DNA of 64,000 nucleotides from Adineta ricciae (taxonomy: Eukaryota > Rotifera > Eurotatoria > Adinetida > Adinetidae), in the NCBI GenBank assembly GCA_905250025.1, contig CAJNOJ010000043.1, positions 124,001-188,000 on the forward strand, written 5' to 3'. Below are positions 29,364 to 51,471 of this stretch, piece after piece. The position numbers and the translations under genes are program-made. The notes beneath the pieces were generated by a model. It did not search any database, had not been told where the DNA came from, and saw nothing but the letters and a program-made list of their open reading frames with translations. Position 1 is the stretch's first letter. Every line of letters starts with the position of its first letter.

Positions 29364-30194
29364 ATGAGTAGTTTGAGCTATATTCGATACGAAAATCCCA
29401 TCGAACTGCGTCAGGCCATTCGTTCCGGCCAATTCACATCCACGACTAGTAGTCAATGTCCTCAGTATGTTCAAGCCAATATGGTCATTCTGCCAAAGAC
29501 TGTTTCCGATAAATTCTTGCAATTTTGTCAATCCAATCCACGAGCATGTCCTCTACTGGAAATGTTGCCAGCTGGAACGTATCAACCGAGAAAATTAGCC
29601 AAAACTGATGCTGACATACGTACGGATGTACCAAAGTATCGTGTTTACCAAAATGGAGAATTAGTTGAAGAAGTAGCTGATGTAAAAGAGCTTTGTAAGG
29701 AAGAGATGGTGACATTTCTTCTTGGTTGTTCGTTTTCATTTGAACATGCTTTGCAAAGCAACGGTATTCGTATTAAAAACGTCGATGAAAACAAAAATGT
29801 TGCGATGTATAAATGTTCCAAGATTCAATGTCCGGGACCGCTTGATAATGTTACATTAGTCGTTTCCATGCGACCTATACGAAATGATCAAGTTGAACTA
29901 GCAAAGGAAATCACGGGTGCGCCGCATTTTCAAAAAACACATGGAGCACCTTTGTATTGTGGATACAATTATGTGGAAGAGTTAGGTATTAATGAAGATT
30001 TAAATCAGGTGGATTTCGGTGAATCAGTTACGATCAATCAACAAACTGAAACACCATGTTTTTGGTATTGCGGTGTGACAGGAATCATGGCTGCCATTGA
30101 AATAAGTAAAACGGATAAGGTGACATGCATAACACATTCGCCGGGTTACATGTTTGTGTCGGATATTAGAGAAGACGAAGACATTCCACAGTAG
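29364..30194 (+). CDS. UPF0317/DUF1445 hydro-lyase (D-glutamate cyclase-related), intronless
   Basis: Single exon, 276 residues, the usual size of the bacterial YcsI/UPF0317 family (about 260-270). The match runs end to end: RQAIRSGQFTSTTS, YVQANMVILP, FLQFCQSNPRACPLLE, DIRTDVPKYRVYQNGELVEE, FLLGCSFSFEHAL, VVSMRPI, KTHGAPLYCG, VDFGESVTI, PCFWYCGVT, ITHSPGYMFV. Members are annotated as putative hydro-lyases. Vertebrate DGLUCY carries a related domain but is a longer, multi-exon mitochondrial protein. Here the domain stands alone, has no targeting sequence and no intron, among neighbours with up to 29 exons. Acquisition from bacteria, common in bdelloids, is the likely origin, though retroposition or descent from a DGLUCY-like gene is possible. 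The true substrate is unknown. Confidence 0.88.
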   Translation: MSSLSYIRYENPIELRQAIRSGQFTSTTSSQCPQYVQANMVILPKTVSDKFLQFCQSNPRACPLLEMLPAGTYQPRKLAKTDADIRTDVPKYRVYQNGELVEEVADVKELCKEEMVTFLLGCSFSFEHALQSNGIRIKNVDENKNVAMYKCSKIQCPGPLDNVTLVVSMRPIRNDQVELAKEITGAPHFQKTHGAPLYCGYNYVEELGINEDLNQVDFGESVTINQQTETPCFWYCGVTGIMAAIEISKTDKVTCITHSPGYMFVSDIREDEDIPQ

Positions 30195-44038: not shown

Positions 44039-44224
44039 TTCTCATGTGCGTGTGTTCTTCTTTCGTGCGTGCGTTCGTTGTTGTTGTAATTAATCATTTT
44101 CAATTAATGGAATTTAGACAGAATGTCAGTTAATCTTTACGCTTCTTTTTATAAAAATTCTTTCATCAATGCAAATCGTCAAATTTGTTACTTGTCAGAA
44201 TAAGGCTTGTTCTAGATCGTAAAC

Positions 44225-46504
44225 ATGACTGACAATGCTATCGATGACGGAGACAGTGACTATAAACAATTTCTTCAAACACATCAATTACAGCTCGTTT
44301 TTAATAATATTCCCAAACATCTTTACCGTCGTTTATACGAGAAAATGAAAAATGAAATATTTGACAGCGGATCATATTTTCAGTTGTGTCCGGTAGATGA
44401 TGACGATGACGAATTAGAGAAAGCTTACAATCCTGAACGGCGATTTTATGTGTCAACATTAGAAAATGTTGTGCTCGATCCCGAAAAAGACGAAAACGCC
44501 ATTTTTCTTATCGATCACGCATGGACATATCGTATTAAAGATGCACGGAATGATTTACATACAATTCCTAAATTATACGAACGTATGGCATCGTTAATGA
44601 ATGTCAATTCTGATGTTAAAGAAGATGGTATAGAATTAATCTTACAGCGCATGTGGAAATTCAATCAAACATATACATTAACATCGACGCAGATCGATCC
44701 GCACATCGATGTCGAAGCCGCGCAAGAACCTTATTGGTAGGGGACAAGAATTGACAATTGAAAGAAAACGTTTTGTCTTTAGGTATATTATGGATGAGTT
44801 TGGCTCGTCAATTCGTCATTCGTCAACAAATGCAAATGTCTACTGTGCATCATTTTTCTTTGAGCCAACGCAAACCATGTTTACACTTCTCTATCCGATT
44901 TCTCGGATTGAACAGCCGTATACGGAAATCTTTCGAAACTATGTCTATGATAATAGTAGTTCATTGGATCGGAATATCAAATTACTACCATGGAATCGTG
45001 TTCATTTTCGTAAGGCAGTGCTTCGAAGTTTAACCATTGACAATTGCCCGGAAATTTTCGAGAAGAAACGCTCGAAGGATGTGGAAATTTTCGAAGAGTG
45101 CCATAAAAACGATCTCTATGATAAAACACCCGTTCCTACTAACAACACAAATTCTGACTTTAATCGTGTGTTTAAAGTTTACACTGATCATGATCTGATT
45201 AAACAACATCTAACTGATCCACATTATCAACTGGTTGATAGTTCCGATCAAGCTGATATCGTATTTATTAAAAAGGTTATACAAGATTTTCGTCACGAAA
45301 CTTTACGTTCACAATTGATCAATCAATTTCCATTCGAAAACATTCTCACCAATAAAGAACTATTAGCATTAGTCTCTCGACGATGGAAAGCTCTATACAG
45401 GTATGTTGCGAGGAGACATGAAAGAATGTTTGAAGAAAATCAACAATTGAATTATTTAGACAAGAGAACTTGTCTTTCGACAAAGTGACCTTTGAGGTGA
45501 AGTAATAGTTCGCCAGGATTGAACGAATATCTTCTTGATAGATATTTCTACTAATATTAATGACTGTTTGTCTCTTTTTCTTTTGCGCATTTTCAACTTC
45601 GTCTCACGTTTAGCGCATCGACAACGAACGAGGATCCGTATATTCATTCGCATGGAAGTCCACCGTGGTTACCAACAACGTTCATTCTCACGTATGAATT
45701 ACCACAGTTTGCTGTCTATTTTCAAGTGAGTGCATTGCTTTTTTCTTTCATCTATCGAATCGTTTTCTTTGACAAAACTAGTATCGAGAAGATCAACAAA
45801 TTGACAATACATGGATTGTCAAACCCATCAATTTAACACGATCGATCGATGTTTCGGTAAGCAATCTTTTCGATATGATTATTCGTTTACCTGAGTCAGG
45901 CTCCAAAATCGCTTGTAAATACGTGTCGACGCCCGTTTTACTCAATGTGCCTGACGTTGAAGGTAACGGTGTTAAATTCGATATTCGTTACATATTACTC
46001 GTACGAAATGTTCACCCGTTGAAATTATACGTTCAAAAGGTTTTCTGGCTTCGTTTTGCTAATAAACCTTTTTCTCTAAAAACATTCGACGACTACGAAA
46101 CACATTTCACGGTTATGAACTATCGAGTCGATGCGCAATTACGACAGATGGATTGTGACACATTTGTTAGTTTATACAATGAACAACACGGTCAAAAGAG
46201 TGGAAATTGGTCGGTGATTGAAAAACGGATTTTTCAAATGTTTCGAGAATTGTTTCATTGTGCGACAAGCGAAGAGCCACCACTAGGCATTAGTTCGTGT
46301 TCTTCATCCCGCGCACTCTACGCTGCTGATTTAATCTTAGAATTTGATAATAATCATGAAATTCAACCAAAATTATTAGAAGTTAATTATTCGCCCGATT
46401 GTCATCGGGCATGTACTTATTATCCAAATTTTTATAATCAAATTTTCAATGTACTTTTCCGAGATCTGATTGACGATCAGAATGTTCTCGATATATCCGT
46501 GTGA
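44225..46504 (+). CDS. TTLL12: Tubulin-tyrosine ligase-like protein 12
   Basis: Exons: 44225-44736, 44783-45400, 45614-45725, 45782-46504; 654 residues (human 644). TTLL12 combines an N-terminal SET-like region with a C-terminal TTL-like ATP-grasp domain and has been linked to tubulin and histone modification, although ligase activity is doubtful. Here YIMDEFGSSIRHS, PISRIEQPYTEI and LLPWNR match the middle region; FKVYTDHDLIKQHLTDPHYQ, INQFPFENILT, GSPPWLPTTFILTYELPQF, NTWIVKPINLTRSID, GVKFDIRYILLVR, VFWLRFANKPF, HFTVMNY and LLEVNYSPDCHRACTYYP match the TTL-like part. Codons 45857 onward look like a donor (gtaagc) but homology shows they are coding. A 3' splice site ends nine bases before the ATG. 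Confidence 0.95.
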
Positions 46505-46636
46505 TAACTTTGAATGATACAAATAAATACTGGTGATGGGTTTACATCAAATTCAGCGTAAGAAATCATTCAAAACTGAACTTCACTAGACAAATGGCGT
46601 TTTTTTTTCGTAGAAAAGAAACAGTTCAAAACCTAT

Positions 46637-48466
46637 TTATTGTTTTTTGTTCGTCAGTTGATCGTATTGGTCTTGATATATTTTTATTCTTTCACGATTT
46701 TCTCCGTATTTTTCCTTAGCAATAGTTATCGCTTTTAACGCGTGTTCAATGGCTTCGTTGTTGTATCCGAGAGAATCGAATACTATTGATAAATCTCGGT
46801 GAATATCAGCACGTGTTGTCCTGCTAGTCGAATCAGATTTTGCCGATGGTTTTAAAGCTTTCTGAAACCATTCGCGTGCTTTTGGATAGTCTTGTTTCAA
46901 TAAATACACTTGGCCGATGTAATACATAAGAAGCGAGATCATGTTTGAATCGGGCTTTTCAGCTTGAACGACGATTTTCAAGGCAGAGATGAATGCATGA
47001 CGAGCTTGATCGTAATTTCCTTGTTCTTTTTCGATGGTACCAATATGTGAATGAATTGAAGCTATTGAAGATGGATTCTCTGGTTTCAACGGTAATTCGA
47101 TATCCAGATGAGATTTGTAATGATACAGAGCACGCGAATGGTCTTGGCATTTTTCATAAGCATATGCTAAATAACGATGAATATCGGCGCATTGTTTCGA
47201 GTCTTTCTCGTCAGTGTTTTTCAGAAGGCTTTCGAAAATTTTCGTCGCTTTATCGAATAGGTTTGTTTCGATCATGTATCGACCTAAGGTAAAAAACTCT
47301 TGTATTCTTCCATGCTTATGTCGAATGGAATCGATGGTATTTTTGATCTGTTCGTGTTTATCATCGACTAAGATCAAATTGATTCGCCATAGTTTATCTT
47401 CAAATCGTTCGATTAGTTTTATTTGAAAAATTGGATTCAATGAGAAGAGTATGTGTCGATCGGTGTCGTGGAAATAATCCAGTTGATCCAGAGATACGAA
47501 TGGAAATGACGAGGTTGCCCGATCGATATCGATTTCGAAGAAAATTGATGTCAAATTTGAGTTATTTGCAGATTGTCTTGCAAAGCTCAACGAAATTTCA
47601 CGATCGATCGTCGTTCGTAAAAAGGTATTGAATGAAATGAAATCGTTGATTTGCATGTTCAAACGTTGAAATCGGTCACTCGAGAGCGCTTGACTGTAAT
47701 AAACCGATAAAGTCTGAGGATCCGTGGATTGAGTGTATAAATCATTGATTTGTTTATGTAAATCAGAGATGAAGAAAGCAGTTTGGTAAAGAATTTCCAT
47801 ATCGGCTAATCTTAAAGCTCGATGAATCATCGAAGAAAGAAAACATTCGCGAGTATACCACTCGATAGGTGATAATTGCTTGAAAACGTGATTTTCAAAC
47901 TGATCAATGATGATTAATTCGTTTGGATTATCTCTATAATGATCACGTGCGAATTCAATCAACGATCTTTTCTTTTGTTCATCTGACGGGTAATGAAGTA
48001 GGACTTCTCTCAATAGCAGCGAATTGTAAAACGTCGTTGAGTGATTGTTGGAAAGCATCCCAATCGAAGTTAGATCATTTGTTGCTTGACGGACATCCCG
48101 TCGAATGGCATCATGAATCGGACGAAGGTCTGCATACACTCCTTGAATTTTCCAATAGTCTTTGGTCCAATCAGCTTGATAGTGTCGATCATTACAAAGA
48201 ATATAAATTGAATATATTTGCTTATATGGCTCCAATCTCGTAACAATATCTTTAGCTAGAGCTTCTGATATGATAACAAATACTTCTTCATCATGAATCT
48301 CTTCCACAAATTGGAGCAATTCCTTCGAAGACGAATAGAATTTTATTGTATTAATATAAGATTGAAATAGATGTGATGATTGTCGATGTTCCGTGCCATT
48401 TGGGTCTAACCAGGCAAGTATGAAATTTTCTACAGAGTTTCTTTTTGCATCTGCGGTATGTGCCAT
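46637..48466 (-). CDS. Bdelloid-type ART-like/TPR protein, catalytic residues lost
   Basis: Single exon of 609 residues. The N-terminal domain (residues about 12-125; NFILAWLD, EVFVIISEALAKDIV, SIYILCNDRHYQADW, GVYADLRPI) recurs in many bdelloid proteins, usually before an arginine-specific ADP-ribosyltransferase fold and a TPR tail. The ART-like part spans about 235-375: FISFNTFLRTT (STS strand), SIFFEIDID, and HILFSLNPIFQIKLIE, then KLWRINLILVDD. Active relatives carry an R, an STS and an ExE triad. Here the R position is Tyr257 (VYYSQ), STS reads RTT, and ExE reads Asp336-Arg337-His338, so transfer activity is unlikely. Five or six TPR repeats fill residues 385-600. It converges with TTLL12 (132 bp between stops). 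It may be a scaffold that kept the fold without the chemistry. Family recognition is from memory of bdelloid proteins. Confidence 0.8.
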   Translation of the reverse strand: MAHTADAKRNSVENFILAWLDPNGTEHRQSSHLFQSYINTIKFYSSSKELLQFVEEIHDEEVFVIISEALAKDIVTRLEPYKQIYSIYILCNDRHYQADWTKDYWKIQGVYADLRPIHDAIRRDVRQATNDLTSIGMLSNNHSTTFYNSLLLREVLLHYPSDEQKKRSLIEFARDHYRDNPNELIIIDQFENHVFKQLSPIEWYTRECFLSSMIHRALRLADMEILYQTAFFISDLHKQINDLYTQSTDPQTLSVYYSQALSSDRFQRLNMQINDFISFNTFLRTTIDREISLSFARQSANNSNLTSIFFEIDIDRATSSFPFVSLDQLDYFHDTDRHILFSLNPIFQIKLIERFEDKLWRINLILVDDKHEQIKNTIDSIRHKHGRIQEFFTLGRYMIETNLFDKATKIFESLLKNTDEKDSKQCADIHRYLAYAYEKCQDHSRALYHYKSHLDIELPLKPENPSSIASIHSHIGTIEKEQGNYDQARHAFISALKIVVQAEKPDSNMISLLMYYIGQVYLLKQDYPKAREWFQKALKPSAKSDSTSRTTRADIHRDLSIVFDSLGYNNEAIEHALKAITIAKEKYGENRERIKIYQDQYDQLTNKKQ

Positions 48467-49089: not shown

Positions 49090-51471
49090 ATGAGTCGAAC
49101 AACGTTTTTGAACGTCGATGATACCAAAGCTGGTATGGCAGATCTGGATAAAGAGAAAATCAACAGATTGATTCTAGAAGCATCGAAAAGTAGGTATATG
49201 AATGCTGAGTTCGCTCAATCGATGAAATTTTACTGGAATAGATTCAAAATTTTTCAAACAACAACAACGTCGTGAAGAAGTATGATCGAACGAAGCCTGA
49301 AAATCAAGTGTAGTTTATCTTTCCAGGAAAATCGTCGGCGAATTGAAGTCAAATTATCAAAGATAAAGTCATTTACTCCCTTTCAAATTGAACAAGCAGA
49401 AAAAGCAGTAAGAACCGCCGCAAAACATCTTGCTATACATTATTTTTCACTCACTTCAAGGCAGACCGATATCTAAATCAATTAGACAAAACTCGACGTT
49501 TATCGCGCGCATTTTGCCATATAGATATGGATGCTTTTTATGCCTCGGTCGAAGTAAGCCGAATAAATACGTCTTTTCATCCAAGTTTTCCATCGCTCGT
49601 TTTAGATGCGTGATAATCCAGCACTTCAACATGTTCCAATGGCTGTCGGCGGTGACGCTATGTTGGTAATCAATGAAACTTCGACTTCCGTTCACAATAA
49701 GTTAGATAATACCTCTTGTTTTTAGTCAACATCGAATTATTTAGCCCGTCAATTTGGCGTACGTGCCGCTATGCCTGGTTTCATCGCAAAGCAACTATGT
49801 CCGAATCTTGTCATTGTTCCATGTGATTTCGAAAAATATCGAATCGACAGTTCAAAAGTAATGTAAGAGACAACTTTCGACGAAAAAGGAAAAGATCGAT
49901 AGTCTGTTCTATACAGGAAAATTATCAGTGAATACGATGATAATTATGGTTCATGCGGTCTTGATGAAGCATTTGCGGATTTAACAAATCATTTACAACA
50001 GCGAGCGACATCGTCCGAGCAACAACGAACATTTCCGAAAGAAGTAATGTCTACTACTTAATTCGATAAAATGAACGGCAAAGTTTCTACTAGGAAAACT
50101 CAACTGATACGATTACATTTGGTCTCACAGCAGAAGAAACTGTGCAAGAGATGCGTCATCGAATTTATCTAGCCACGCGATTAACAGCAAGTGCTGGGAT
50201 TGCGTGTAATATGCGTTTAGCAAAACTATGTTCAGGTAGAGATTTTCATGAATGTCATTGCTTGATTCAAGAAATTTTAGATATCAACAAGCCTAACGGA
50301 CAATATCAATTAGAATCAAACGTTGACGTTATTTTAAATTTTATTCGTAATCTACCAATACGAAAGGTAGTGTTCACATTTTAATATCTGCGCCTTCAAG
50401 TTGACAATCTAGATCAAAGGCATTGGAAAAGTCACTGCTCTCCATCTCGAATCACTTCATATTGAAACAGTCAATGATATTTACATCAAACGTGGTATTT
50501 TAAAGCTAATTGAATATCCCACAACGTTTGATTTTCTCATGCGCGTGTGCAATGGATGCGGTTCGACAGCTATTGAACACGATGATATACAAAAGAGTGT
50601 CGGACACGAAACAACGTTCAATAGTACAAATAATTCGTCACAATTGATAGCTATTTGCCAAGAATTAGCCAAGAAGACAGTGGATGAATTAATTAGCGAT
50701 CGGATTCTATGCAAACGAGTGACGCTGAAAATTAAAACCGCCAATTTTGAAATCTTAACACGATCGAAAACACTTTCATCCTATACAGACTCGTTGAGTA
50801 TGATTACAGACAAAGCAGTTACGTTGCTTAAACATGAGCTTGATCAAGATCTCGAACTACCAGCATTACGATTAATGGGTAAAGAATCGAATTCGAATAG
50901 GAACCGTTGATTTGTTTTCATTTTCAAGGCGTTCGAGTTGCTGATCTCAAAACGAAAAGTTCTGATCTGCCACTACTTCATTTCTTCTCCAAACAATCGA
51001 ATACAGCAAGCACAGAAAATGCGCATGATATGATTGAAGATATCGATGACGAAGATGAAATCGAAGAGTTTTCCGCGGAAGAAAATCAACACACGGACAC
51101 TTGTCCATCTATTCACAAACATCAAGACGAAGAAGATTCAAACTCGGGTGTTACCACATGTCCAGTATGTCACAAGATGCTTCTAGGTGATAACGAGAAA
51201 ATCAATCAACACATTGATATATGTCTAAATGGCGAAATGGTTCGAACGACAATCAAAGAGGAAGATCAACGAACATCACCCCAAATCAATCATGCTAAAC
51301 GGTATGATTCTGCTCTCTTCTGCTTTTCTATATATTTGAATGTTTGCATTTGCCAGAGTTGGTTCGACACAATCGAAATCGACGCCACCAGCGAAACGGC
51401 AACGAAAAAAACTGGATCTTACACCACCACCACACGTAAACGGCATTGATAGTTATTTTCTCAAAAAATGA
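49090..51471 (+). CDS. POLK: DNA polymerase kappa (Y family)
   Basis: Translesion polymerase that extends past bulky guanine adducts. Exons: 49090-49189, 49242-49279, 49327-49407, 49461-49553, 49606-49665, 49726-49862, 49917-50043, 50094-50235, 50281-50366, 50413-50878, 50929-51301, 51357-51471; 605 residues (human 870). AGMADLDKEKINRLILEA is the polymerase-kappa N-clasp. Catalytic HIDMDAFYASVE holds Asp95 and Asp97; GLDEAFADL holds Asp186 and Glu187. RAAMPGFIAKQLCP, LTASAGIACNMRLAK and NKPNGQYQLES are typical, followed by the IKGIGKVTA helix-hairpin-helix and the PAD. A single C2HC UBZ finger (Cys521, Cys524, His538, Cys542) replaces the two of vertebrates. PIP-like motifs are LLHFFSKQ and the end IDSYFLKK. 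An alternative start at 49024 would add 22 residues. Confidence 0.94.

What the first reader, a model, noticed from the sequence alone, without database searches (positions are those of the whole stretch)
46637..48466. ADP-ribosyltransferase fold that kept its shape but lost its catalytic triad, joined to TPRs
The protein aligns by eye with the bdelloid N-terminal domain + arginine ART + TPR family. The three catalytic positions are all changed: Arg to Tyr257, STS to RTT (residues 284-286), and ExE to Asp336-Arg337-His338, with the catalytic Glu replaced by His. The flanking strands (FISFNTFL, SIFFEIDID, HILFSLNPIF) and the long TPR tail are intact with no stops in 609 codons. This suggests a selected pseudoenzyme, for example a decoy, NAD sensor or scaffold, in a lineage with many active ART copies.
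Basis: partly seen in the sequence, partly recalled or inferred. Interest (0 to 1): 0.75.

Follow-up and report, generated by a model that had tools for sequence, protein, structure and literature searches.

The report
Catalytically dead ADP-ribosyltransferase-TPR paralogue
One gene in a very large family of ADP-ribose-transferring enzymes has lost every residue needed for catalysis while its reading frame stayed whole, so it probably works by binding other proteins; several relatives in the same genome have lost parts of the active site independently.

Summary
Window 46637-48466 (-) is an intact 609-codon ORF in a large N-domain + arginine-ART + TPR family (72 loci including itself match from N-domain through ART, a lower bound). 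Of 104 paralogue ART domains read, 87 keep R, STS and [EQ]xE. This protein alone lacks the Arg, the first Ser and the catalytic Glu together (Y257; R284-T-T286; D336-R-H338). The columns match the R, STS and ExE of the Vis toxin.

The gene looks maintained: frame intact, N-domain and first TPR half constrained. Three other motif-damaged lineages have ART-domain dN/dS 0.12, 0.14 and 0.19 between sister copies. On this gene's own branch, however, the ART domain is relaxed and neutrality is not rejected for it as a whole. Only the hydrophobic core looks retained, and that depends on the cut-off. An NAD sensor is unlikely. No dN/dS was possible for this gene (no close copy), and structure prediction failed (pLDDT 42).

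Best reading: a maintained non-catalytic binding protein, with a probable sister (L020) partway along the same path. Pseudo-ARTs are a known kind (ART3, ART4, TASOR); their recurrence inside one TPR-ART family is the less expected part.

The parts
46637..48466 (-). Whole gene: single open frame of 609 codons plus stop (N-domain + pseudo-ART + TPR)
48071..48439 (-). N-terminal domain, residues 10-132; shared by the family, no credible relative in a PDB sequence-profile search
   Evidence: neutrality rejected on this branch (residues 1-135)
47312..47869 (-). Pseudo-ART domain, residues 200-385
47696..47698 (-). Y257 (TAC) at the region 1 Arg position
47609..47617 (-). R284-T285-T286 at the STS position
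47453..47461 (-). D336-R337-H338 at the ExE position; catalytic Glu is His
46640..47311 (-). TPR region, residues 386-609
44216..46504 (+). Convergent neighbour, tubulin-tyrosine-ligase-like (SET_TTL match in 44682-45488; name TTLL12 recalled; outer limits from open frames), ends 132 bp from the pseudo-ART gene; a 73%-identical copy of its last 209 codons lies on contig C6
49024..51449 (+). Upstream neighbour, Y-family DNA polymerase (IMS_C match in 50413-50907; name POLK recalled; outer limits read from translations); the 165-codon piece searched has no second hit in the genome

Best explanation
The gene encodes a maintained, catalytically dead member of a large N-domain + R-S-E ART + TPR family. 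It cannot bind NAD in the usual way or transfer ADP-ribose. It most likely acts as a non-catalytic binding or adaptor subunit through its N-domain and first TPRs, competing with or joining active paralogues or their partners. The ART part survives as a folded body whose pocket and surface have been released from constraint. Shown by calculation: homology, loss of all three motif sites, intact frame, constraint on the N-domain and first TPR half, relaxation of the ART domain. Inferred: absence of activity, a folded ART domain, binding as the mechanism, and active paralogues as partners.
For: Triad loss at columns fixed by Vis and by 104 paralogues. In the related iota toxin, substitutions at the same sites abolish or strongly reduce activity (region 1 R to A, first STS Ser to A, either Glu to D; table passage in PMC3000352). 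On the WIN branch neutrality is rejected for the N-domain (2dlnL 19.6), residues 136-199 (11.8) and TPR 386-499 (21.6), none of which is relaxed (no correction for several tests). Stop-free survival falls to 7% at 0.03 and 0 of 2000 at 0.1 neutral changes per site, times at which on average 0.32 and 1.0 of the 5 catalytic codons would have changed. Decaying copies do occur: 5 of 49 fetched paralogue loci carry in-frame stops. The probable sister L020 (99/96; 97/88 without motif columns; same contig, about 67 kb away) also lacks STS and the Gly after the Arg position, so, unless the losses are parallel, erosion began before the two split. Sister copies of motif-damaged ARTs elsewhere: L089/L101 (Arg to Tyr) dN/dS 0.12, L065/L067 (Arg to His) 0.14, L117/L120 (Glu to Lys) 0.19; Fisher p 7e-8, 5e-7 and 1.4e-3.
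Against: No dN/dS could be taken for WIN: the best other full-length match in the genome is 32% identical and synonymous sites are saturated. The ART domain alone does not reject neutrality. The second TPR half does not either (2dlnL 1.4). No transcript, protein, partner or assay data. Both AlphaFold runs without an alignment failed (pLDDT 42.2 and 42.7). L020 shows the opposite TPR pattern (0.0 and 16.6), so the codon test is noisy in the repeat region.
Confidence: 0.6

Rival explanations
1. The dead ART domain itself is the selected part: a decoy or scaffold surface that mimics active ARTs.
For: Hydrophobic core kept: 58 of 64 core columns hydrophobic, the same as the canonical long-branch member L019 (58). 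Under neutral drift at the fitted ART time (0.63 per codon) this is reached in 1.6-4.8% of simulations. Core codons reject neutrality at cut-offs 0.7 and 0.8 (2dlnL 9.4 and 12.4) and on two other topologies (15.6, 27.6). Other motif-damaged lineages keep the whole ART domain constrained.
Against: At cut-off 0.9 the core does not reject neutrality (2dlnL 0.2) and even favours relaxation over no change (4.8). At the shorter neutral time 0.34 core retention is unremarkable (17-52%). Non-core ART codons look neutral (2dlnL 0.0 with L020 as sister), though a star tree rejects this (10.4), and leaving the 8 motif codons out weakens the relaxation signal from 14.6 to 5.8.
Confidence: 0.2
2. A recently dead gene on its way to becoming a pseudogene.
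For: Long branch; relaxed ART domain; only 31 of 53 strongly conserved ART columns kept (58%), against 72% in L020 and at least 89% in the other 43 aligned paralogues.
Against: No stop or frameshift in 609 codons; N-domain and first TPR half constrained. Five changed catalytic codons do not fit the short neutral time that an open frame allows: at 0.1 changes per site or less, none of 2000 simulated runs changed all five.
Confidence: 0.12
3. An enzyme with an altered or migrated active site and some other NAD-dependent or unrelated activity.
For: Tyr257, Arg284, Arg337 and His338 put new side chains where the pocket was. Phe295, which lines up with the nicotinamide-stacking Phe of Vis, is kept. 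Some apparent pseudoenzymes proved active (discussed in PMC7955679, passages).
Against: Reading the sequence, there is no Arg within five residues of 257, no Ser within five of 284 and no Glu within five of 338. Conserved polar columns are lost more than hydrophobic ones: 12 of 30 kept against 24 of 35 (Fisher p 0.026). A new activity should constrain its own residues, and the non-core codons look free in most settings.
Confidence: 0.06

Closest known systems
Mammalian ART4 and ART3 (acatalytic R-S-E clade ARTs)
   Same: Same clade of ART, motif lost while relatives stay active. Human ART4 has Tyr and mouse ART4 His at the Arg position (PMC2576468, passages), the same two replacements seen here (Tyr in WIN and L089/L101, His in L065/L067).
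   Different: ART3 and ART4 are listed as membrane or extracellular proteins; that they have no TPRs or N-domain of this kind is recalled. Human ART4 is listed with Ser and catalytic Glu kept (G-S-E, or Y-S-KxE); WIN has lost those too.
TASOR, PARP13/ZAP, RCD1 (pseudo-PARPs)
   Same: Dead ART folds kept in multidomain proteins. In TASOR a Tyr plugs the nicotinamide cleft and the domain is not stabilised by an NAD mimic (PMC7532188, passages).
   Different: PARP-type (H-Y-E) fold, not R-S-E. TASOR's pseudo-PARP domain was shown to be needed for silencing; nothing of that kind is shown here.
LRRC9 ART-like family
   Same: Predicted pseudo-ART embedded in a repeat protein, proposed to act in defence (PMC7955679, abstract and passages).
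   Different: LRR instead of TPR; remote fold prediction; no active members described in the passages seen. Here canonical paralogues sit in the same genome.
Canonical members of the same family (e.g. L010)
   Same: N-domain + ART + TPR; L010 is the best full-length match (32%) and groups next to WIN and L020 in one tree (96/85; not when L020 is left out).
   Different: L010 has R, STS and ExE and is recognised by Pfam as ADPrib_exo_Tox and ART.

Membership tests
Catalytic R-S-E clade arginine ADP-ribosyltransferase | Region 1 Arg ([YFL]Rx) | tested here: not met
   Tyr257
Catalytic R-S-E clade arginine ADP-ribosyltransferase | Region 2 [YF]xST[SQT] | tested here: not met
   F282-L-R-T-T: first Ser is Arg
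Catalytic R-S-E clade arginine ADP-ribosyltransferase | Region 3 [QE]xE | tested here: not met
   D336-R-H338
Catalytic R-S-E clade arginine ADP-ribosyltransferase | Recognised by PF01129 or PF03496 | tested here: not met
   No hit for WIN whole or ART domain alone at E up to 1; of 23 family members 16 hit PF01129 and 17 PF03496 at E up to 0.01
Catalytic R-S-E clade arginine ADP-ribosyltransferase | NAD-dependent activity | not testable with these tools
   No assay
N-domain + ART + TPR paralogue family of this genome | End-to-end homology over N-domain, ART and TPR | tested here: met
   E 2.1e-103 to L010 over residues 7-595; canonical ART profile 149.5 bits
Pseudo-ART (inactive ART fold) | Common descent with canonical ARTs plus loss of the motif | tested here: met
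Pseudo-ART (inactive ART fold) | Fold retained | tested here: inconclusive
   Core hydrophobicity kept, but AlphaFold without alignment failed
Pseudo-ART (inactive ART fold) | Maintained by selection | tested here: inconclusive
   Gene as a whole yes; ART domain of this copy not shown; sister pairs of three other motif-damaged lineages yes

The most novel reading that the evidence does not exclude
The TPR-ART expansion carries its own class of selectively maintained dead members. At least five lineages in one genome (WIN; L089/L101; L065/L067; L042; L117/L120) independently lost the NAD-binding Arg or the catalytic Glu, and act as built-in regulators, decoys or dominant partners of the active enzymes, like a receptor network with catalytic and helper members.
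Probability: 0.25. Interest if true: 0.72.

Novelty: new variant of a known kind. Interest (0 to 1): 0.47.

Why it matters
Reports on Adineta vaga link the annotation 'ADP-ribosylation' to desiccation and radiation (PMC10809525) and spaceflight (PMC12220480) responses (passages only). If the TPR-ART family contributes to that annotation (not tested), part of it counts proteins that cannot ADP-ribosylate. A family holding canonical and independently damaged members in one genome would allow direct tests of how pseudoenzymes arise and what keeps them. The probable pair L020 and WIN would give an intermediate and an end state.

Tried and rejected
Structure: the full protein and residues 189-394, folded from single sequence, gave pLDDT 42.2 and 42.7, so no fold search was run.

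Close copies for dN/dS: none found in the genome. Other relatives: none in viral contigs or genome contigs (37 and 54 pattern matches, none confirmed). The second copy of the tubulin-ligase gene on C6 has an MTHFR-like gene (name recalled from reading the translation) where WIN would be, so it does not date the insertion. The polymerase neighbour piece has no second hit.

First codon-model runs: one with branch lengths near the bounds; one in which 3 of 6 regions stuck at a bound and are discarded, where the ART region gave 2dlnL 2.5 against omega 1 and 1.1 without motif codons. Both ART values agree with the later result that the ART domain does not reject neutrality. One search timed out before its TPR part, which was redone with fewer taxa. 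One search was a script error, redone.

Sisterhood of WIN and L020: two careful trees support it (105 ART domains, 33 of the 45 full-length rows, 12 near copies left out). A quick tree of 105 ARTs without motif columns gives no strongly supported set holding WIN, and leaving L020 out loosens WIN from L010. Long branches are flagged, so it is probable, not certain.

N-domain: no PDB relative (best E 0.45). NCBIfam matches of WIN, L010 and L020 gave no ART family, mostly TPR-type models. The NAD-sensor idea was rejected because the pocket residues are gone.

Papers: nine of ten searches used. Titles and abstract starts in these listings (searches listed only part of the papers found) named no bdelloid TPR-ART family and no rotifer pseudo-ART. 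Papers were seen as passages found by term only, never whole.

Full report
1. What is there. The frame at 46637-48466 (minus) is intact, 609 codons. It lies tail to tail, 132 bp from a tubulin-tyrosine-ligase-like gene, and next to Y-family polymerase exons. The host genome is held without a name (130 Mb, 1033 contigs).

2. Family. The whole protein finds 72 loci including itself that match from the N-domain through the ART, most of them into the TPR; this is a lower bound because only the best candidates are scored. The best other match, L010, is 32% identical. Of 23 members scanned one by one, all hit TPR families, 17 hit PF03496 and 16 PF01129; WIN hits TPR and other repeat families but no ART family. 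The family ART profile finds the solved arginine-ART Vis at E 2.4e-7, and the next hit is at E 0.76.

3. Motif. I fetched 49 paralogue loci at length, dropped 5 with in-frame stops, and read 60 further ART domains, 104 in all; one search listed 150 matches, its cap, and the rest were not read. 87 keep R, STS and [EQ]xE. 17 are altered; ten of these keep Arg, first Ser and catalytic Glu and change only a later STS letter or the first Glu. The other seven, in five lineages, lack the Arg, the first Ser or the catalytic Glu: L020, L042, L117, L065/L067, L089/L101. WIN is the only one without all three. On a quick tree built without the motif columns, at least three changes are needed for R, three for catalytic E and four for first S. 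All three sequences that lost catalytic E (WIN, L042, L117) also lost first S; of the three lineages that lost R, two did.

4. What the changes should do. In the comparison table of PMC3000352 (passages only) the region 1 Arg binds phosphate, the first Ser positions the last Glu, and the two Glu act in the reaction. In iota toxin R to A, either E to D, and first S to A leave 0, 0 and 5% activity. WIN has Y, D, H and R at these places. The profile alignment puts them in the same columns. This predicts no NAD binding of the usual kind. It is not an assay.

5. Is the gene kept? With neutral substitution on the WIN sequence, a stop-free frame survives in 15.5% of runs at 0.02 per site, 7% at 0.03, 2.6% at 0.04 and 0 of 2000 at 0.1, while at 0.04 on average 0.43 of the 5 catalytic codons would have changed. 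So the triad was lost over a time in which the frame was being kept. A codon model with three site classes, on a polytomy with WIN and L020 as sisters and WIN as foreground, gives, for relaxed against neutral, 2dlnL 19.6 (residues 1-135), 11.8 (136-199), 21.6 (386-499) and 1.4 (500-609). TPR numbers rest on repeat alignments and are weak; L020 as foreground shows the reverse pattern there (0.0 and 16.6). Synonymous sites are saturated and several tests were made without correction.

6. Is the ART domain kept? For the whole ART domain the WIN branch is relaxed (relaxed against unchanged 11.8) and neutrality is not rejected (2.2). L020, L019 and L015 as foreground reject it (11.8, 39.2, 80.0). 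Split by family hydrophobicity, WIN not used, into core (64 columns) and the rest (122), the core rejects neutrality (12.4) and is not relaxed, and the rest looks neutral (0.0); the three other foregrounds reject neutrality in both parts (core 5.0, 34.0, 46.2; rest 12.2, 33.0, 47.8). The core result holds at cut-off 0.7 (9.4) and on two other topologies (15.6, 27.6), but not at cut-off 0.9 (0.2, with relaxation favoured at 4.8). With a star tree the rest rejects neutrality (10.4). Counting directly, WIN keeps 24 of 35 conserved hydrophobic and 12 of 30 conserved polar columns (Fisher 0.026); L020 keeps 23 and 16, so it is eroding too, while nine other members in the same table keep 32 or more and 25 or more. 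In WIN 58 of 64 core columns stay hydrophobic, which neutral drift at the fitted time gives in 1.6-4.8% of simulations, and at a shorter time in 17-52%. I read this as a fold kept, at most, with pocket and surface released.

7. The same thing elsewhere in the family. Three motif-damaged lineages have a sister copy that allows dN/dS in the ART domain: L089/L101 (VYY, LVN) 0.026/0.209; L065/L067 (VYH, SAT) 0.028/0.202; L117/L120 (LTT, EEK) 0.018/0.092. Ratios are 0.12, 0.14 and 0.19, all below 1 by Fisher test. The 22 other printed pairs with a ratio, apart from the mildly altered pairs L078/L090 and L095/L102, run from 0.06 to 0.48 with one at 0.68; one more pair has no synonymous change, and pairs inside the 16-member near-copy clade were not printed. 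L078/L090, which change only later STS letters, give 0.62 at dS 0.04, not different from 1 (p 0.49); L095/L102 give 0.26. Motif loss without decay is therefore real in this family, even where it cannot be tested for WIN.

8. Sister. L020, on the same contig about 67 kb away, keeps Arg and ExE but reads LTT for STS and, like WIN, Ser after the Arg position. It groups with WIN at 99/96 in the ART tree and 97/88 over N-domain plus ART without motif columns, with canonical L010 next. Long branches make this probable, not certain.

9. Against what is known. Mammalian ART3 and ART4 are acatalytic R-S-E ARTs, with Tyr (human) and His (mouse) at the Arg position of ART4 (PMC2576468, passages). TASOR is a pseudo-PARP whose dead domain is needed for silencing (PMC7532188, passages). 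LRRC9 is a predicted pseudo-ART in a repeat protein (PMC7955679, passages). WIN is of this kind, with an architecture that none of these three has as described in the passages seen, and with canonical siblings in the same genome. It is not a member of the catalytic R-S-E family by the three motif tests.

10. Verdict. Observation confirmed; interpretation partly supported. Most likely a maintained non-catalytic binding protein (0.6).

Noticed in passing
L089 1-501, L101 1-504 (C158, C118); L065, L067 (C74, C56): Paralogue pairs that lost the region 1 Arg to Tyr and His, the same two replacements as human and mouse ART4, with ART-domain dN/dS 0.12 and 0.14.
   Followed up: yes
L117 and L120 (C99, C249); L042 (C247): Catalytic Glu replaced by Lys and Gln, with STS changed as well; the L117/L120 pair is under purifying selection (0.19).
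   Followed up: partly
L032, L034, L044, L049, L052: Five of 49 fetched family loci carry an in-frame stop, so ordinary decay also occurs in this family.
   Followed up: no
whole genome G000: PF01129 gives 150 matches over its cut-off (the capped list), many in open frames of 200-350 aa, too short to hold N-domain, ART and TPR of the length seen here: a very large ART expansion.
   Followed up: no
window 29364-30191: D-glutamate cyclase domain (PF07286, E 2.5e-41) in a 276-aa ORF.
   Followed up: no
window 46636-46641: An AATAAA on the minus strand overlaps the TAA stop codon of the pseudo-ART gene, which would leave a very short 3' untranslated region if used.
   Followed up: no
C6:542700-546720 (L119): The second copy of the tubulin-ligase gene is followed by an MTHFR-like gene instead of the pseudo-ART and polymerase genes, so local order differs between the two copies.
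   Followed up: partly
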